NCBI GenBank assembly: GCA_964036195.1 | Contig: OZ038458.1 | Coordinates: 19,481,832 to 19,545,831, forward strand | Source of the DNA: Sphaerolaimus hirsutus | Lineage: Eukaryota > Nematoda > Chromadorea > Monhysterida > Sphaerolaimidae | Direction of reading: 5' to 3' | DNA: 64,000 bases | Shown here: piece by piece, positions 18,652 to 37,272 of the stretch | How the letters are laid out: each line of letters opens with the position of its first letter | How positions within the stretch are numbered: the stretch's first letter is position 1 | Program-made: the position numbers and the translations under genes | The notes under the pieces: model-generated | The model's input: the letters and a program-made list of their open reading frames with translations, nothing else | What the model was told of the DNA's origin: nothing | Databases searched by the model: none

Positions 18652-20316
18652 TCAAAGATTGGACATTTTCACAAAGATCGCAGCCAAAGCGGCGCAGAGA
18701 ATAATCGCCACGCGAGTGGGCATATTGGCACTCTGCCCGTTGCAGAAGTCGCCCTTGCAGCAGCACATTTTCACGGGAATTTGGTGTCCCTCGTCAACGC
18801 CTCGCAACAATAATGGCAAACCTACGTCCACCTGTGATGATTTTATTTACTTTTTTTATAAACCTCGGCGGACCGCACGCTCCGCCTTTTTCTGAAGGAA
18901 ACTCTCGATCATGACGTCATCGTGATAGAAAAATGATTGTTCCAAAAAAAAATTATTTCAGGCGTAAAAAATTATGTTGGTTGTACTCGGCTCCGCCTTT
19001 TCTTTTTCAAATATTTTGCGTGGGAGCTGATACATAAGTTTCCTACTCCCGCGTTATCGACTGCAGTAGTATGTTATAATTATGTTATGCTGGTAATTAT
19101 AACATGTAAGTAATTTTGGGCGCATATTGTGCTGTCCGCCGAGTATAGGAACATAGTTTGGGGCATAGTTTCACTGTCGGGGGGAGGGGGGTGTTCGCCA
19201 CAAGCACACTAGTTGTGACTCTGGACCGTCCCAAACAGCCTCGAGTGGGTTATAAATCTCTAGTGAGCGCAGCGTTCCGCAAAAGCCCACAGCCGCGACA
19301 TACCTTGACAGTCCCAGTCTTTAACTCCTTGCAGCCTTCAGCTTCGAGGCAGTTTGTAGTATCGGCGCAACCCTTGAAATACAGCTGCTCGTCCTCCCCG
19401 ACTGCGTTCTTGTAGCAACCGTCGGAGTTCTTTGCGCACGGATCCGCGGTGCCGGTTGACTGCGTTCGGGGGGTGAACTGAATTTTGGGGTGCCGTTTTT
19501 GGGGGTCCCGCGGGGTTTGTTTGGTTGTTCTTTCGCACCCCTGCTCGGTGAAGTGGCCATTTTTTGGGAAATTTTTTAATTTACTTGCACATACTTTGAC
19601 ATTGAAATTGATGACCGCAAATTATCCGAAGGCGCCGTTGGCGCCTGGCGCCGCTTTTCGATATGCGCCATTCTTTCTGGCGCTTTTCCATCACTATTGG
19701 GTTGTAAATATCATTAATGTCGAGTAGGACCTCGGTGACCTTGTGGTGAACTCGTCCATTTTTTTATTTACCAACCCTTTATTACCTATAAATAAATTGC
19801 GAAATATTTTAGTTAGGGTAACGCTTTTGAAATTACCACCGCAGACAGGCGCAATAAAACCTCTTTCATTGGAAAAAAGTGCTCACAGGCCGGTCGCCGC
19901 CATCATACTTTTTCGTGAAACACTTGACGCCTTCTTTTTTCTTGGTGTCCTCGCCCGCCGCTATGGACGCCGTCAGGAGCAGAAGTGTGGCCGCCAGGGG
20001 GCAGTCCCAGACCCTGTAAAGTGTAAAGTAAAGTGCCTGATGTCATGTAAAAGGTCAGTGTAAACCAGAAAAGAAAAGATTTTTTACTGATATTTGAATG
20101 ACAATTGACACTTTACATTTGCCATGACAATTGACACTTTACATTTGCCATGACAACTGACACTTTACATTTGCCATGACAACTGACACTTTACATTTGC
20201 CATGACAATAGACACTTTACATTTGCCATGACAATAGACACTTTACATGACATTTGACACTTTACTCCACACTTGACAGTGTGTGGGACTGGCACCAGGA
20301 TGCCGGTGCGCAACAT
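18652..20316 (-). CDS. Ly6-1: secreted/GPI-anchored Ly6 (three-finger) domain protein
   Basis: A small cysteine-rich surface protein of the Ly6/uPAR fold; its function is unknown. Coding blocks on the minus strand are 20316-20296 (MLRTGIL), 19994-19887 (AATLLLLTASIAAG signal core, then EGVKCF and YDGGDRP), 19459-19304 (CAKNSDGCYKNAVGEDEQ, FKGCADTTNC) and 18831-18652 (VKMCCCKGDFCNGQ, then the hydrophobic tail VAIILCAALAAIFV and TGA). CCxGDFCN is the Ly6 end signature, and the hydrophobic tail suggests a GPI signal. An introner-like element (19998-20295) with a CAG/CTG duplication splits the signal peptide. Its exact removal gives 465 nt (154 aa) in frame, equal to Ly6-4. On the sense strand the duplication is CTG, so no canonical acceptor AG sits at the precise boundary. 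The gene is therefore either broken, unusually spliced, or started elsewhere. Confidence 0.72.
19627..19695. repeat. GGCGC-array MITE remnant
   Basis: A short GGCGCCGTTGGCGCCTGGCG stretch ends GGCGCTTTTCCATCACTA, inside the first Ly6-1 intron. The matching copy in the duplicated Ly6-2 locus (24898-25075) is longer. Confidence 0.6.
19998..20295. mobile_element. Introner-like element (copy 3) inside Ly6-1 signal peptide
   Basis: It runs GGGGCAGTCCCAGACCCTG...GTGTGGGACTGGCAC (plus strand) between two CAG triplets (19995-19997 and 20296-20298). The interior includes five near-identical units of about 30 bp, TTGCCATGACAAnnGACACTTTACA. It interrupts codon positions of a signal peptide that is continuous in the paralogues. 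Confidence 0.82.
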
Positions 20317-28264: not shown

Positions 28265-29936
28265 TCAAATGTCTGGAATGTTCAAAAATTGGAAAATTAT
28301 CACAGCCAAAATCGCACAGCAGAAAAATGCAACGAATGTGGGCACATTGGCAACCTGCCCATTGCAGAGGTCGCCCTTGCAACAGCACATTTTCGCGGGG
28401 ATGACACTTTTGGCTTCGCCTATACCCGCTGATCTGCCTCGTACCTGCCAGTGCCATATGCGGATTTAAGTAGGGTTGCAAACTGCGGCGTGATATAAGT
28501 AGGTATTTAGGTAGGTGGTTGAGGGAGTTGGCTTGCATTATATGTGTGGTATTTCGGCGCCATCGCCTCATGATATATCACTCTTCGAGAATGGCGGCGC
28601 GCCTGGCGCCATTTTCTATGCTTGGCGGGTCAATATAAAGTAACTGAAAAATTGATGTTTCCAGTCTGAGTTTTTTTCTTCAAAATTCATGTTCCAATCT
28701 CAACTTTTCTAGATAAATTATCATGTGAGAGATGTTATTTTCTAACTTGAATGGAAAATGATGTTGCACAATAACCTACGGAAAATTGATTTAATATTCC
28801 ATTGACTATTATTATACTCCGGTTACTTTACACCCTGCACGCGTGGTTCCCGCTGGAAGTGTGCCAGCGATGGTTAACGCGTCCGAGTTTCATAAAAAGA
28901 TGACAAAATTGATTGTTGTTATAATGTTATTCACTAACATATTCACATCGATGATTTTTTTTCATATTTTTACGGAAATCGCATGATTTAATAATCATTG
29001 GCACGCTTCCAACACGAGACATAAATCAGTGCGAGGGCAGAGTATCACGTACGCCGAGTATAAAAGGGGTGATTTTTCAGAGGGGTGGGGGGGTGGGCAA
29101 TCAAAAATGTACAGTATCTTAATCAAAAAAAATTTTCAACAAAAATTCTGACATACCACTACATCGACATCCTTCTCCTCCACGCATCCCTCTTCGCAGC
29201 AGGTGTTCAGAGAAGCGCAACCCTTGACAAACAACTGATCGTCCTCCCCCAACGCATCTTTGTAGCAACTGTCGACACCCTCTGGACAATCGATGGTGCC
29301 CGTTGACTGCGGTGGGATAATTGGGTGGATTTAAGGCGGAGTTTGTGCTGAACTACCTAGACGCTTTTAAAAAAGAGCCGTTTTTCAACTGGATCGCAAA
29401 TTTTAGTACATACATACACCAGGTTTTTAAAAAAAATTTGTGCAGAAAGATGTAATTTCATAAAAATTACCGTTGGTCGTTGTTTGCATTGGTTTTGTGG
29501 CAGTTTTAGTCAAAAGCTTGCCGACACTTTTCATGCTAGTGTGCAATAACACGTACACTGCAATAACACGTACACGTACCAGCGCCGTGCACTTTGCAAT
29601 GGGATAAATTAACCTAGTGCCAACAGCACCAGGACACATACACCAGAACTCACAGGATTATCACCGCCCTCATACAGATGCTTGAAACACCTGGTGCCAG
29701 TCCCTGACCCTGTAAAATGCCCTGTAAAATGTCATGCAAAGTGTCAAAAGTCATGGAAAATGCCCTGCAAAATGGCTACTGGGTTGCCATTTTGCATGCC
29801 ATGTTCCATGACATTTGACATTTTACAGGGCATTTTACAGGGTGTGGGACTGCCCCCTGATTCCATCCACCAGAATCGACGGGTGCGTGAGCAGCAGAAG
29901 CGTCGCTGCCAGGGCCGCGCTGCCCATGCCCAGCAT
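28265..29936 (-). CDS. Ly6-3: secreted/GPI-anchored Ly6 domain protein
   Basis: Coding blocks on the minus strand are 29936-29857 (MLGMGSAALAATLLLLTHPS signal peptide), 29690-29654 (CFKHLYEGGDNP), 29306-29157 (STGTIDCPEGVDSCYKDALG, KGCASLNTCCEEGC) and 28444-28265 (KMCCCKGDLCNGQ, hydrophobic VAFFCCAILAVII, TGA). Phase is consistent, giving about 148 aa. The first two blocks are separated by an introner-like element (29694-29856) between CAG triplets. Exact removal joins ...VDGI-RCFKHLY, matching DKIQCFE in Ly6-4. The sense-strand tip is GG rather than GT, so the precise boundary would be GG-AG. A GT-AG alternative (donor CT|GTAAAATG, acceptor CACCAG|G) is also in frame and adds RGQSHTL in place of R. 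The intron at 28445-29156 contains an unrelated MITE. Confidence 0.78.
28814..29061. mobile_element. MITE with CCCTGCACGCGTGGTTCCCG
   Basis: About 248 bp bounded by ATACTC and GAGTAT. The copy at 39215-39468 shares ACCCTGCACGCG, GTTCCCGCTGGAAG, TTCATAAAAAG, CATTGGCACGCTTCCAAC and GGGCAGAGTATCA in the same order. Confidence 0.75.
29694..29856. mobile_element. Introner-like element (copy 5) inside Ly6-3 coding region
   Basis: It runs GTGCCAGTCCCTGACCCTG...GTGTGGGACTGCCCC between CTG triplets (29691-29693 and 29857-29859; CAG on the gene's strand). It is 163 bp and almost entirely palindromic. Confidence 0.82.
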
Positions 29937-32150: not shown

Positions 32151-32362
32151 TATCACAGAGAGGGATCTTGGGTAGCCGCCCACTTTCCCCTCCGGTTGAA
32201 TTCCCCTCAGAGGCAATTGGCAATTGAATTACCAAATGTCCAGATGATTTGCCAATTCAATTAGCAAACGTTCGGGCGGTTTGCCAAAAACCCGTTAAGG
32301 TGACTTGACTATCAGTTAAATTCCCCTTGAGGGGGATTGACCTGGGAAGGGAATGTGACCTA

Positions 32363-32535
32363 TGGGCACTCTCAGACCCCGTCAAAAGCCCTGTAAAATG
32401 TCAAATGCCATGCAAAGTGTTAAAAGTCATGAAAGTCAACCGAGTTGCCATTTTGCAGGGCATTTTCCGTGACTTTCGACACTTTGCATGACATTTGACA
32501 TTTTACAGGGTTTTTTACAGGGTATGGGTTGGCAC
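32363..32535. mobile_element. Introner-like palindromic element (copy 7)
   Basis: It runs TGGGCACTCTCAGACCCCG...ACAGGGTATGGGTTGGCAC with CTA triplets on both sides (32360-32362 and 32536-32538). It lies just 3' of the Ly6-4 stop codon, so it may be in the 3' UTR. Confidence 0.7.
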
Positions 32536-32570
32536 CTAGATTCAGGATCTGGGACACATCTCATCTCTAC

Positions 32571-35500
32571 TCAGATGTCAACGAGGTGCAACATTTTCAC
32601 GAGGATCAATACGAAGAAGGCGCAGCAGCCGATTGTCACGCGGATGGGCACGTTGGTTTTCTAGGGGGCAGTCCCAGACACTGTAAAAGATCCCGTAAAG
32701 TTTCATGTGTCAAGTCTTATTTTTCGTATCCAAATCTTATGTTTTTGCATCCAAATCGTACGTTTTTGGTGTGTTTTTTGTCTCCAAATCTTATATTTTT
32801 GTATCCAAAACTTATATTTTTGTATTGAAATCTTATGTCCAAATGTAAGATGTGCATGGAAAGGCATAAGATTTGGATACTATATAATAAAATTGAAATA
32901 CACATGACACTTTACATGGTCTTTTACATGACACATGACATTTTACAGGGTCTGGGACTGGCACCTGGCCGTTGCAGAAATTATCGTCGCAGCAGCATTT
33001 TTTGGCGGGGATATAATTATCTTGATCTTGACCGAAACTGTAGGTCGTAAATCCGCCTTTCTGTAAACGGAGAAGTCGCAGGTTGCAAAATGAGTGGAAT
33101 TTCAAATACCTTATTACCTCGAAATACCCCCAGCGGGTTTATTATTTCGCCAGCAAAATTTGAGGGGGGGATAATTAGAGGGGGGTTTATTCGAGGGGGG
33201 GTCTATTAATTCGCCAGAAATTTTCGGAAATTCCCCATACGCAGACGTAGAAAAATCGAACAATCACAGATTTATATGTGTTTATAAGCATATATTACTG
33301 TATATACACAAAACCATTCCCTAACGTCACTTAATCATCAGTTTTAACGTGTGTTCTGCATAGTATTTTACAGATCACAAACTGCGGTATTTGTCATGTA
33401 CGTTCATGTTACACTCAATTTTAGGGGGGGGGGGTATTTCGAGGGGGGGTTATTATTTCCTCAGCCGAAAGTTAGGGGGGTATTTCGAGGGGGGGTGGGT
33501 TAATTCAAGGGGGGGATAATTCGAGGTAATACGGTATTTAATTGAATACCTAGATCTATATATTTTTTAAAGCAGTGTTTACACGGCCTCCGTGTGACGG
33601 CACTGGTGTCGACGGGACCCAAATACTTATCACCTCCAATCTTTTCATATACCGTATTTCCTCGAATTACCCCCCTCAAAACGGCCACTATGAATTTATA
33701 AACCCCCCTCGAAGTCTTCTTTTTCATGGTGGTTATTGTTGCATTTTTCTACCTCTTGCGTACATTACAACCAACAATAAGTAGGTATTTTTACCTATGT
33801 ACTGGGAGTTCAAGATAATTCTGGTGAAATAATACCGCCCTCGCAAAAACCCCTCAAAATTTCCACCATGAAAAAATAAACTCCCTAACACACGATAATT
33901 TTTGAATTGACAGTAAATTTTTTGGCCCGTTTTCAGAATTAAATTTTTCATTTTTCAAAAATATTTCTTAACATCAAAAATTTATTAGGTATTTTCAAAT
34001 ATATTCCCCTCACAATGACATCACTATTAAACCAACTATCTCGACATCGACGCTTATTTTTTGACAGTGATTGACGTCGGGGCAGTGAGTCTCGTCGGCG
34101 CAACCCCTGATATAGAACTGATCATGCTCTCCGAGCGTATCCTTGTAACAATACTGGCCATCCTTACATTCGACGATTTTTGGCGGCTGCATTGAGAGTA
34201 CAATGATGTAAACAGCGCCAAAATTTGGCGCCAGGCGCTTTCTAAACCTTAGCGCCAAGCGCCAATAGTGCCACGCGTCAAAAGCTCCATGACTAGGGTG
34301 TCAAATTTCCGTTTTCCGTTTTCCGTTTCCGTTTTCCGCAGGCAAATTTTTTCCGTTTTCCGTTCCGTTTTCCGGCTGCTGAAACTTTTTTTCCATTTTC
34401 CGTTCCGTTTTCCGGCAACTTTTTTTTCCGTTTCCGTTTTTCCGGCTCATTTTCCGTTTGCCGGCTAAATTTTCAGTTTTTCCGCTTTTTTTTCCATTTT
34501 CCGCCTCAATTTTCCATTTTTCCGCCTCATTTTACCTTTTTCTGGCTCAACTTTCTGTTTTCTGATCTGCCAAACTGGTAAAAATTCATGCAGATTATCA
34601 ATGATGTAAAATTTTTTCTGTTTCCAGCATAATTACTGCAAATTTTTTCCACTACCAGCAAAATTTCAGCAAATTTTATCTGTTTTCCGGCAAAATTTCA
34701 GCAAGTTTTTCCATTTCCGTGCAAATTTGATTTTTCCGTTTCCGTTTTTCCGGCCTCTCTTTCCATTTTCCGGCCGCTGAAATTTTTTTTCCGTTTCCGT
34801 TTCCGTTTTCCGCCAAGTGCAAATTTTTTTCCGTTTTCCGTTCCGTTTTCCGGCCGCTGAAAAATTTTTTCGTTTCCGTTTTCCGTAAAAAATTTTTTTT
34901 GACACCCTATCCATGACGCAGTTTCCTTTGGCGCTAGCGCCAGCTTTTGTTTCTTTCTGGCGCCACTTAAAACTAGCGCCAAACGTCAAAAGCGCCAAGG
35001 CGCTTTTCTTGGGCATTGCGCCAAGCGGCAGGAAGCTGTACGCACCTTTAAGTAGGGATTTTGATCACCGCCCACATATAGATGTTCGAAACGGGTCAGG
35101 CCTAAATGGCATCTAATCCGCTTGGCATCTGGACCCAGATAGCATGGATTTCTGTCTGCTTGGCATCTAGACCTGCCTGGCATCTATCCAATGCTGGATG
35201 CCAAGCGGACTGTGGCATAGATGCCAAACTGGGGGGTAGGGCCAGATGCCAAGCGGGCAGGGCGGGTCTACATGTCCAGTGTATCATGTGCACAAAAAAT
35301 ATGAATTCAAAATGTGTAAAAATTTCAATGTTGTTCCCAATTATTATTTTCAGATGTCAAGTGTCTCTGAATTTTTTTATTTAAATGCAAATATGAGTAC
35401 CATTTGAAATGGGGAAGAAGGGTAGATACATGCATGCCCATGTAAATTCATAAATACAAATCTTTAGTAACCCTGTAAGAGTGGCTACTAGAATAAATTT

Positions 35501-36854
35501 TTATCAAGCCATTTTTTTGAGGGAATTGCATTTTGGGACACCATGCATGTAAAAAGCCTCAGTGTTAAGGGGCAACTTTCAAATCGATTGATCATTTTTG
35601 GAAACAGCTTTGTAAACTTCCATGTGTATTGGGCCACCCTGTTCAAGTGGCTTTCAACATTGAGTTCCAGCAGTGTTCACATGGAATTTTAACTCATTTA
35701 CAGGGTTGCCTACATTAGTGGATTCCTAGTTTCCTAGTTTAGTGCATATGGCTAAATTTCAATCAAACACATTATTTGGATGAACAAGTTCTTATTTTTT
35801 GGACAACGGTATTGTATAGGAATTTTTGGAGTGCCTCTACGATGGCGTGAAATATCGCAGTAGACACATTTAATCCACAATAAACTTCAAATTCAAATTC
35901 AAACACAACACTAAATATATTGATCAATATTTTATTTCAATTTCACATTTCAAATTGGCTGATTTTGAGGATCCCAGAAAATCTGTTAAAAATATCTTAT
36001 TTGACCATCTATTTCTAAGCCATCATGTACACAATATTCAATGCATATCTCACCACACTACCCAGATCAATTTGAGTGTTGCCCCTTAACACTGAGGCTT
36101 TTTACATGCATGGTGTCCCAAAATGCAATTCCTACCAAAAAATGGCTTGATAAAAATTTATTCTAGTAGCCACTCTTACAGGGTTACTAAAGAATTGTAT
36201 GTATGAATTTGCATAGGCATGCATGTATTTATCTACCCTTCGTCCCCATTTCAAACAGTACTCATATTTGCCTTTAATTAAAAAAAATCAGAGACACTTG
36301 ACATCTGAAAACAATAATTGGGGAAAACATTGAAATTTTTACACATTTTGTAACATTTTACACATAATTTTTGTGCACATGATACACTGGACTGGATAAA
36401 CAGGTGTACTCCTATAAAAATAAGTTGCAGGGTGACAGGTTCAGCGAGTAATATTTCAGCTGTGCAAGTAAAGGTTCAGCACAAATTTTTGAAAAAACAA
36501 CAACATTTTTTGTCAGAATTTATTTTGGGACACCATGCATGCACAGGCGCGCAACAGCCCGCCATGAGGCACAGAAACCATGAGGCCGTCTCGTGGGTGG
36601 GGGGGGGTTCAGCCCGCTTGGCATCTACACCCACACGGCATGTAGCCCGCTTGGCATCTATGGGACAATAGATGCCACGCGGGTCTAGATGCCATGCAGG
36701 CAGAAATCCATGCCACGCGGGTCCAGATGCCATGCAGGTTTAGATGCCGAGCGGTGCAGACTCGTTCGAAACACTGTATTTTATCCGCTAGCGCCGACTG
36801 GTGCGTCAGCGTGAGAAGCAGAAGCGTAGCTGCGAGAGCGGCGCTGCTCAACAT
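32571..36854 (-). CDS. Ly6-4: Ly6 domain gene with element-derived intron and a fold-back insertion
   Basis: Coding blocks on the minus strand are 36854-36764 (signal MLSSAALAATLLLLT, then ALADKIQCFE), 35083-35046 (HLYVGGDQNPYLK), 34186-34037 (CKDGQYCYKDTLGEHDQF, RGCADETHC), 33060-32965 (GGFTTYSFG, AKKCCCDDNFCNGQ) and 32660-32571 (KTNVPIRVTIGCCAFFV tail, TGA). The sum is 465 nt (154 aa), as in Ly6-1. The last two blocks are one exon in Ly6-1, -2 and -3; here an introner-like element (intron 32964-32661) splits them at CNGQ|KTN, with donor CAG|GTGCCA and acceptor CCCCTAG. The first exon is broken by a 1671-bp fold-back element with 9-bp TSD (35093-36763), which has no GT-AG at its exact ends. 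The gene is therefore possibly dead, unless that element is also removed from the RNA. Confidence 0.75.
32664..32964. mobile_element. Introner-like element (copy 8) acting as an intron of Ly6-4
   Basis: The plus strand runs GGGGCAGTCCCAGACACTG...ACAGGGTCTGGGACTGGCAC between CTA (32661-32663) and CTG (32965-32967). On the gene strand it reads CAG|GTGCCAGTCCC...GGGACTGCCCCTAG|AAA. The interior has a module of TATCCAAATCTTAT copies, direct and inverted, shared with copy 9. Confidence 0.87.
33107..33536. mobile_element. TACC...CGGTA-ended element in Ly6-4 intron
   Basis: It runs TACCTTATTACCTCGAAATACC...TTCGAGGTAATACGGTA with G tracts. The internal stretch TTTTAACGTGTGTTCTGCA...CAGATCACAAACTGC is shared with 27040-27110 and 56350-56400. 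Confidence 0.7.
33649..33893. mobile_element. TACCGTATTTC-ended half element
   Basis: Starts TACCGTATTTCCTCGAATTACC, with CCCCCTCAAAA modules at both ends; the right tip is not found. It lies in the Ly6-4 intron next to the previous copy. Confidence 0.5.
34195..35025. mobile_element. GGCGC-array element split by a TTTCCG element
   Basis: GGCGCCAGGCGC blocks at 34215-34265 and 34928-35020 flank the insertion 34294-34909. The insertion site duplicate TCCATGAC shows the two halves were once continuous. Confidence 0.6.
34294..34909. mobile_element. hAT-like element built of TTTCCGTTTTCCG arrays
   Basis: The ends are TAGGGTGTCAAATTTCCG and TTTTTTGACACCCTA, with the perfect 8-bp duplication TCCATGAC (34286-34293 and 34910-34917). 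The interior is degenerate TTTCCGTTTTCCGGC. Same family as 46943-47494. Confidence 0.88.
35093..36763. mobile_element. 1671-bp fold-back element with 9-bp TSD in Ly6-4 first exon
   Basis: It is flanked by the perfect 9-bp duplication GTTCGAAAC (35084-35092 and 36764-36772). The outer zones are arrays of GATGCCAAGCGGG and its complement (35108-35260 and 36608-36760). Inside are long inverted arms, such as GGACACCATGCATGTAAAAA near 35537 with its complement near 36110. A 9-bp duplication points to a Mutator-like (MULE) fold-back element. No transposase is seen. Confidence 0.85.
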
Positions 36855-36876: not shown

Positions 36877-37272
36877 GTGCCAGTCACAGACCCTGTAAAA
36901 GACCCTGTAAAGTGTAAAAGACCCTGTAAAGTGTAAAAGCCCTGTAAAATGTCGTGTATCAACGACTATGTAAAGTGACAGGTATCATGTAAAAGACCAT
37001 GTAAAGTGTCATGTATCATTAAAAGACACTGTACAGTGGCAGGTGTCATGTCATGTAAAAGAAAAAGACCCTGTGAAGTGCCATTTGTATCCAAATCTTA
37101 TTGTTCGTATCCAAAAATTTTGAACATAAGATTTGGATACAAAAACATGAATTCGATGTGATACAATAAGATTTAGGTACACATGATACCTTACACGGTA
37201 TTTTACATGACACATAATATTTTACATGGTATTTTACACTTTACAGGGTCTTTACAGGGTCTGGGACAGCAC
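36877..37272. mobile_element. Introner-like element (copy 9) upstream of the Ly6-4 start codon
   Basis: It runs GTGCCAGTCACAGACCCTG...AGGGTCTGGGACAGCAC between CTG triplets (36874-36876 and 37273-37275). It is 396 bp and carries the TATCCAAATCTTAT module also found in copy 8. It lies 22 bp 5' of the start codon on the gene strand, so it would be in the 5' UTR. Confidence 0.8.

What the first reader, a model, noticed from the sequence alone, without database searches (positions are those of the whole stretch)
32571..33060. A transposon became an intron: paralogue comparison shows clean intron gain in Ly6-4
In Ly6-1, Ly6-2 and Ly6-3 the last exon is uninterrupted through CNGQ-SAN or CNGQ-VAN. 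In Ly6-4 a 301-bp palindromic element sits exactly there. Splicing CAG|GTGCCAG to CCCCTAG|AAA (intron 32964-32661, minus strand) gives CNGQ-KTNVP with no gained or lost residue. The donor is the element's own tip; the acceptor AG comes from the target-site triplet. This is the expected behaviour of an introner (intron-generating transposon).
Basis: partly seen in the sequence, partly recalled or inferred. Interest (0 to 1): 0.92.

Follow-up and report, generated by a model that had tools for sequence, protein, structure and literature searches.

The report
Transposon hairpin acting as new intron
A short hairpin-shaped transposon has landed inside a protein-coding exon of an animal gene exactly so that it could be cut out of the message as a brand-new intron, and many sampled copies elsewhere in the genome also sit in exons, so this looks like a factory for new introns, although the cutting itself has not been seen.

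Summary
In the fourth Ly6-like gene (minus strand) a 300-bp palindromic element splits the last coding exon after CNGQ. Removing 32964-32661 (GT...TAG) restores CNGQ-KTNVP, in register with the paralogues; six of six other significant paralogue exons run through the site. The two target-site copies are CAG and CTAG, so the duplication is imperfect. The element belongs to a family of MITEs (short non-autonomous transposons) with CWG target duplications; four exact 26-base end patterns total 2,130 places in the genome. Of 87 distinct sampled copies, codon statistics placed 25 in coding exons GT tip first and 3 the other way. Joined flanks match BCKDHA and IFT70 with no gap at the junction, and three protein families across it. 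A duplicated gene carrying such an element shows 0 amino-acid and 4 silent changes in 103 codons while the element diverged 8.6%. This is introner behaviour: the tip supplies the donor and, where the triplet is CAG, its second copy supplies the acceptor. Splicing is inferred; no RNA was available. Open problem: CTG-type copies, without a terminal AG, also sit in conserved exons. The species was not identified, so earlier cataloguing cannot be excluded.

The parts
32965..33060 (-). Ly6-4 exon 3 (coding, KGGFTTYS...CCCDDNFCNGQ), upstream of the element
32661..32964 (-). Proposed new intron, 304 nt: GTGCCAG ... CCCC CTAG, exactly the element plus the right target-site copy
32665..32964 (-). MITE (introner) copy, 300 bp, terminal inverted repeats GTGCCAGTCCCAGACCCTGTAAAA / GGGGCAGTCCCAGACACTGTAAAA; folds as one long hairpin
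32965..32967 (-). Left target-site copy CAG (Gln codon), exon side of the proposed donor
32661..32664 (-). Right target-site copy, CTAG (expected CAG): supplies the acceptor AG
32571..32660 (-). Ly6-4 exon 4 (29 codons + stop): hydrophobic C-terminal tail, in register with paralogues
34037..34186 (-). Ly6-4 exon 2 (ends read by eye from AG and GT, approximate)
36760..36854 (-). Ly6-4 exon 1, signal peptide MLSSAALAATLLLLTLTHQSALADKIQCF (3' end uncertain)
36877..37272 (-). Second splice-competent copy in the Ly6-4 5' leader: CAG|GTGCTG ... GGCAC CAG|GAG, 19 nt before the ATG (leader status inferred)
19998..20295 (-). Copy inside Ly6-1 signal-peptide exon, CTG|GTGCCAG ... CCCC CTG| (no terminal AG); joined MLRTGI-LAATLLLL aligns with Ly6-4
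29694..29856 (-). Copy inside Ly6-3 first coding exon in reverse orientation, CAG|GGGGCAG ... GGCAC CAG|; joined VDGIRCFKHLYEGGDNP
32362..32537 (-). Another copy just downstream of the Ly6-4 stop codon, target copies TAG/TAG as read by eye

Best explanation
A short palindromic DNA transposon (a MITE with CWG target duplication, resembling the NuwaI group of PIF/Harbinger-like elements) inserted at the CAG glutamine codon of the last Ly6-4 coding exon. Its left tip begins GTGCCA, so the exon now reads CAG|GTGCCA, a GT donor. The duplicated target triplet at the other end, now CTAG, supplies the AG acceptor. The spliceosome removes element plus right target copy and the reading frame is unchanged. 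Shown: the insertion, its absence from paralogues, the frame restoration, the family, its presence in many coding exons and the bias for GT-first orientation. Inferred: that splicing occurs, and at exactly these two sites. In general the tip gives the donor when it lies GT-first in the gene, and the target copy gives the acceptor only when it reads CAG; CTG-type copies must use another acceptor, a non-canonical site, hairpin excision, or be damaging.
For: Exact GT...TAG removal is the only frame-preserving GT/GC-AG solution with zero amino-acid change found for Ly6-4 (5 solutions within the limits searched, all using the same TAG). Paralogue exons uninterrupted 6 of 6. Genome counts of exact 26-base ends: CAG|GTGCC 556, CTG|GTGCC 434, and at the other end acceptor-side CAG 693, CTG 447; 0 for the patterns read backwards. 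Target duplications CAG/CAG 44 of 60 and CTG/CTG 36 of 61 partnered copies. GT-first bias among exonic:3 (p=2.7e-5; random re-pairing of flanks would give about 9:3); 21:3 without training loci, 28:8 with a generic amino-acid model. Homology across joined flanks: BCKDHA 1.1e-18 and IFT70 8.8e-25, no gap at the junction; OSCP1 3.3e-19, VWA 1.2e-8, Srx 1.6e-7, each spanning the junction. Duplicate pair L116/L117: 0 nonsynonymous, 4 synonymous changes in 103 codons with element divergence 14 of 163 plus a 2-nt indel; about 20 nonsynonymous expected if neutral.
Against: No RNA data. Donor GTGCCA is a weak match to the usual GTRAGT (recalled consensus). The target duplication at Ly6-4 is imperfect. 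A stronger-looking GTAAAA lies 18 nt inside the tip and would keep the frame with six extra residues. CTG-type copies without terminal AG occur in conserved exons (L094, L139, L092), and in the 90-base model they show little orientation bias (8:6) against 20:2 for CAG-type (p=0.036; p=0.30 at 120 bases). The model-free ORF test gives only 22:10, p=0.05. Only 7 of 34 sense peptides sent to Pfam passed a curated cut-off, and the VWA peptide found nothing in PDB sequences.
Confidence: 0.75

Rival explanations
1. Imprecise introner: the element is spliced, but with other sites, for example the internal donor CCT|GTAAAA (+6 residues VPVPDP in Ly6-4), or in CTG-type copies a GC donor at +2 with the internal TTTACAG acceptor (+7 residues), or an exonic AG downstream.
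For: Frame-preserving alternatives were found in each of the ten loci enumerated, for three of them only on the second run with shorter upstream sequence: +7 aa GC-AG in L094, L139, L092 and Ly6-1 among others; L116 and L117 share a GT-tip donor with an exonic AG at +15 (-5 aa), among other shared solutions.
Against: BCKDHA and IFT70 homologues align with no gap at the junction when removal is exact, and OSCP1 matches 50 residues on 50 profile positions, although short insertions could be tolerated; L116 has lost the +7 solution.
Confidence: 0.12
2. Spliceosome-independent hairpin excision: paired inverted repeats lead to cleavage and RTCB ligation ('SOS splicing'), removing the element whatever its orientation or triplet.
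For: 81 of 81 elements of up to 300 bp fold end to end against 7 of 81 flank controls. Copies in Ly6-1 and Ly6-3 and CTG-type copies in conserved exons lack one or other terminal splice dinucleotide. The pathway is described for metazoans in a review (PMC13247085, passages); that pairing of the repeats triggers it is recalled, the primary paper was not held.
Against: It predicts no orientation bias, but exonic copies are biased to GT-first.
Confidence: 0.07
3. Not removed: an insertion that breaks Ly6-4, or gives a different C-terminus (VPVPDPVKCHVSCKRP...) without the hydrophobic tail.
For: Retained reading stays open for 43 codons; no transcript evidence.
Against: Downstream exon keeps frame, hydrophobic character and approximate stop position of paralogues; family-wide orientation bias and L116/L117 constraint argue that exonic copies are tolerated.
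Confidence: 0.05
4. Old intron lost from all other paralogues.
For: None beyond logical possibility.
Against: The intron is, end to end, a copy of a mobile element, and six paralogues lack it.
Confidence: 0.01

Closest known systems
Introners (introner elements; Gozashti et al. 2022, PMC9860276, parts 1-3 of 7 and passages read)
   Same: Inserts in exons; many families have TIRs and TSDs; in some, one splice site is carried by the element and the other taken from the TSD; for most families no change in mRNA length; bias to GC-rich motifs in gene-enriched families.
   Different: Here the TSD is a 3-bp CWG; splicing not yet shown; many exonic copies have a target triplet without AG. In that survey introners were found in only two animal groups; whether this species was among them is unknown.
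NuwaI transposons (PHIS/PIF-Harbinger superfamily; PMC4482050, passages and section 7 read)
   Same: 5'-CWG-3' target duplication; TIR usually starting GGG (one end here GGGGC); in that paper known only from animals.
   Different: This family is a short palindromic MITE; no linked transposase found; the other tip starts GTGCC. No NuwaI copy was described as an intron in the parts read.
Amoebophrya introner elements with hairpins (PMC7789003, passages read)
   Same: Inverted repeats at intron ends, 3-5 nt direct repeats at boundaries, hairpin, non-GT-AG boundaries.
   Different: Dinoflagellate parasite, over 60% of introns non-canonical, no family-specific IR; here one coherent family and GT-first bias.
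SOS splicing of DNA transposons from mRNA (review PMC13247085, passages read)
   Same: Transposon removed from host mRNA and the pieces rejoined.
   Different: RTCB-dependent and grouped with non-spliceosomal reactions in the review; the bias seen here points to splice-site use.

Membership tests
Introner | Related mobile copies at non-homologous positions in coding exons, with similarity reaching both ends | tested here: met
   Same ends and TSD pattern in exons of unrelated genes; that they are introns is inferred
Introner | Intronless ancestral state at the site | tested here: met
   Six paralogue exons uninterrupted; orthologues in sister species not available
Introner | Splice sites from element tip and/or target duplication | tested here: met
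   Ly6-4 CAG|GT...TAG|; CAG-type copies CAG|GTGCC...CCCCCAG|; not met at the exact ends for CTG-type copies
Introner | Spliced in RNA | not testable with these tools
   No transcripts held
NuwaI (PHIS) | 3-bp CWG target duplication | tested here: met
   80 of 121 partnered copies identical CAG or CTG, 15 more CAG/CTG mixed, 26 other; Ly6-4 itself CAG/CTAG
NuwaI (PHIS) | TIR beginning GGG | tested here: inconclusive
   One end GGGGC, other GTGCC
NuwaI (PHIS) | Mobilised by its DDE transposase | tested here: inconclusive
SOS splicing substrate | Paired inverted repeats | tested here: met
   81 of 81 elements up to 300 bp fold end to end
SOS splicing substrate | Removal independent of splice sites and orientation | tested here: inconclusive
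   GT-first bias overall, but CTG-type only 8:6 at 90 bases

The most novel reading that the evidence does not exclude
An animal genome in which one hairpin MITE family colonises coding exons on a large scale because two systems tolerate it: spliceosomal removal when the CWG target reads CAG behind a GT tip, and a second route independent of terminal AG (hairpin excision, or GT...TG / GC-AG splicing) for the CTG-type copies found inside BCKDHA, IFT70 and others.
Probability: 0.3. Interest if true: 0.88.

Novelty: new variant of a known kind. Interest (0 to 1): 0.75.

Why it matters
How new introns arise is a long-standing question, and clear animal cases are few: the 2022 survey found introners in only two animal groups. 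Here intronless paralogues, the inserting element and over two thousand exact end sequences are in one genome, so intron birth, its dependence on the target triplet and selection on new introns can be measured directly. The CTG-type copies make a sharp test of whether animals also remove transposon hairpins without AG acceptors.

Tried and rejected
Old intron lost in paralogues: rejected. Chance palindrome: rejected by fold z-score and family. The first whole-element search returned mainly partial matches, the best of them 83-84% over 170-195 bases; of the seven other loci it fetched, six (L003-L008) are one copy nested in a larger repeat with near-constant flanks, so I switched to exact end patterns. 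Longer copies among sampled loci gave no transposase recognisable by eye (not sent to Pfam). PF13359 is abundant; on contig C1, the 15 listed matches lie 3.9 kb or more (start to start) from all 206 exact ends printed for C1, and the nearest ends belong to a complete MITE, L119, so the autonomous partner is unidentified. Dinoflagellate-like and tunicate-like non-canonical splicing were considered; the few host introns read by eye look canonical. Plasmid, tRNA and Rfam searches found nothing. Ly6 proteins reach no Pfam cut-off (best DUF7773 0.00087, QVR 0.0052): 'Ly6-like' rests on weak profile hits and cysteine pattern. Organism: mitochondrial COX1 fits code 5 best as judged by eye; that it and the Srx receptor look nematode-like is recalled, not tested.

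Limits of the statistics: ORF controls are random CAG sites in the window and are not GC-matched. The codon model was trained on 7 pieces, 6 of them sampled loci, one intended piece (L027) being missed; hence the repeats. From 140 sampled tips to 87: 17 had no partner end within 520 bases, 2 were exact duplicates, 26 had another partner triplet, 4 had flanks too short, 4 were near-duplicates. Peptides sent to Pfam were 34 sense and 24 antisense, chosen by ORF length or look, not at random. The Fisher test by acceptor triplet was done after seeing the data. One search stopped with an error before its last table (right-flank motif of CTG-type copies), which was not redone. In one search three of ten loci gave no solutions because of stops upstream of the exon; they were rerun with shorter upstream sequence.

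Full report
The thing itself. On the minus strand the gene called Ly6-4 has a signal-peptide exon starting at 36854, an exon at about 34186-34037 and an exon at 33060-32965 that ends in CCCDDNFCNGQ. A palindromic element, GTGCCAGTCCCAGACCCTGTAAAA...TTTTACAGTGTCTGGGACTGCCCC, follows at 32964-32665, then CTAG, then 29 codons and a stop, KTNVPIRVTIGCCAFFVLILVKMLHLVDI. Removing 32964-32661 gives CNGQKTNVP, in register with CNGQSANMP and CNGQVANVP of three paralogues in the window. Searching the genome with the joined tail finds six other places with E below 1e-6 that run through this point in one piece, while Ly6-4 alone matches in two pieces. So the interruption is derived.

The family. Ten paired copies lie in the 64-kb window, allowing up to 7 substitutions in a 24-base end. 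Four of them lie in exons of this gene cluster: Ly6-4 last exon, Ly6-4 5' leader (exon status inferred), Ly6-1 signal-peptide exon and Ly6-3 first exon. If Ly6 exons are about 3% of the window (my estimate), four or more of ten there has probability 1.5e-4. Exact 26-base ends occur 556 (CAG|GTGCC), 434 (CTG|GTGCC), 447 (CAG|GGGG) and 693 (CTG|GGGG) times, with none for the patterns read backwards; these are ends, so one element can be counted at both. I sampled the first 70 listed places of each GTGCC pattern, from contigs C1 and C2. With a partner end within 520 bases and exact duplicates dropped there were 60 and 61 copies, of which 44 had CAG/CAG and 36 CTG/CTG target copies. CAG/CTG mixed pairs (15 of 121) outnumber any other mismatch.

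Insertion in coding exons. Flanks are GC-rich (0.56 and 0.54 near the ends against 0.41 for the window). Joined flanks of CAG-tip copies keep open frames of 50 or more codons on both sides in 24 of 50 copies on the GT-first strand and 14 of 50 on the other, against 4.9% of random CAG sites in the window, a control not matched for GC. Homology settles individual cases. BCKDHA (L094; 1.1e-18) and IFT70 (L139; 8.8e-25) align through the junction with no gap there. OSCP1 (L016; 3.3e-19), a VWA domain (L066; 1.2e-8; no PDB match) and an Srx-type receptor (L092; 1.6e-7) span it. B4GALT (L057) spans it by only a few residues, a Kelch repeat (L130) ends at it, a zinc finger (L055) lies away from it and SIRT6 (L027; 4.3e-26) stops short of it. 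All of these are GT-first. In all, 7 of 34 sense peptides passed a Pfam cut-off. Of 24 antisense peptides none gave a junction-spanning match above its cut-off; GDT1 in L025 passed its cut-off without spanning, and one sub-threshold match (SBSPON_C, E=0.043) spans. Peptides were chosen, not random.

Orientation. For 87 distinct copies I asked whether left and right flanks independently prefer the same strand and phase without stops. GT-first won 25 to 3 (p=2.7e-5; CAG-type 15:1 of 46, CTG-type 10:2 of 41); randomly re-paired flanks would give about 9 and 3, so the antisense calls are at chance level. The result is 21 to 3 without the training loci, 28 to 8 (90-base windows) and 28 to 5 (120-base) with a generic amino-acid model, and 22 to 10 (p=0.05) by open frames alone. 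The two ends are similar inverted repeats; the clearest difference is in the last few bases, GTGCC against GGGGC at the 5' side. I infer selection for the GT tip, hence splicing.

Acceptor. If the second target copy supplies the acceptor, CAG should be favoured there. Genome-wide the acceptor-side triplet is CAG 693 and CTG 447 (ratio 1.55, p=3e-13), the donor-side triplet CAG 556 and CTG 434 (1.28); the difference between ends is modest (p=0.03), and a target-site preference could contribute. By acceptor triplet the orientation bias is 20:2 for CAG and 8:6 for CTG (p=0.036; not significant at the wider window, p=0.30). The share of sense-exonic copies does not differ significantly by acceptor triplet (20 of 51 against 8 of 36, p=0.11).

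Selection after insertion. L116 and L117 are copies of one gene 16 kb apart carrying a CTG-type element at the same site. The elements differ at 14 of 163 aligned positions plus a 2-nt indel; the 103 coding codons around them differ by 4 silent and 0 amino-acid changes, where about 20 would be expected at the element's rate. I infer that the gene has stayed functional with the element inside. Both copies share a GT-tip donor with an exonic AG 15 nt downstream (-5 residues) among other solutions, so this case does not need non-canonical splicing. Within the limits searched, the BCKDHA copy has no frame-preserving GT-AG solution and the Srx copy only one of +17 residues; both have GC-AG ones, including GC at +2 with the internal TTTACAG, adding seven residues.

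Mechanism and its limits. For Ly6-4 all five frame-preserving GT/GC-AG solutions found use the TAG acceptor, and only the tip donor leaves the protein unchanged. The element folds end to end (z=-9.3), as do 81 of 81 sampled copies of up to 300 bp, which could bring the splice sites together or feed a hairpin-excision pathway. No RNA could be examined.

Compared with what is known. This works like an introner (PMC9860276). Its CWG target duplication matches the NuwaI group (PMC4482050), but the transposase link could not be made. Literature searches for introners, MITE-derived introns and hairpin excision listed no paper I recognised as describing this family; the library is partial, most listed papers were seen only as titles and starts of abstracts, and the species is unidentified.

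Noticed in passing
window 19998-20295 (minus): Element of the same family inside the Ly6-1 signal-peptide exon with CTG/CTG target copies; no terminal AG, yet the other Ly6-1 exons read by eye look open.
   Followed up: partly
window 29694-29856 (minus): Element in reverse orientation inside the Ly6-3 first coding exon (CAG/CAG); in-frame GT-AG use would add 2 or 6 residues, or one with a GC donor.
   Followed up: partly
window 36877-37272 (minus): Splice-competent copy in the 5' leader of Ly6-4, 19 nt before the start codon.
   Followed up: partly
sampled loci L009-L148: Target copies often mismatch only in the middle base (CAG on one side, CTG on the other; 15 of 121), suggesting that the W position is not always copied from the target during transposition.
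   Followed up: partly
G000, listed PF13359 places, e.g. C14:19604995-19605627: Many of the listed Harbinger-type transposase matches cover about 633 bp for 147 positions with 4 in-frame TGA, as if a roughly 190-nt stop-containing insert or intron lies inside the DDE domain.
   Followed up: no
L003-L008: One copy of the family has been carried to several places inside a larger repeat with near-constant flanks.
   Followed up: partly
window, e.g. 27840-27690, 33540-33110, 23390-23260: Recurrent repeat of the type TACCGTATTTCCTCGAAATACCCCCC, often near the Ly6 genes.
   Followed up: no
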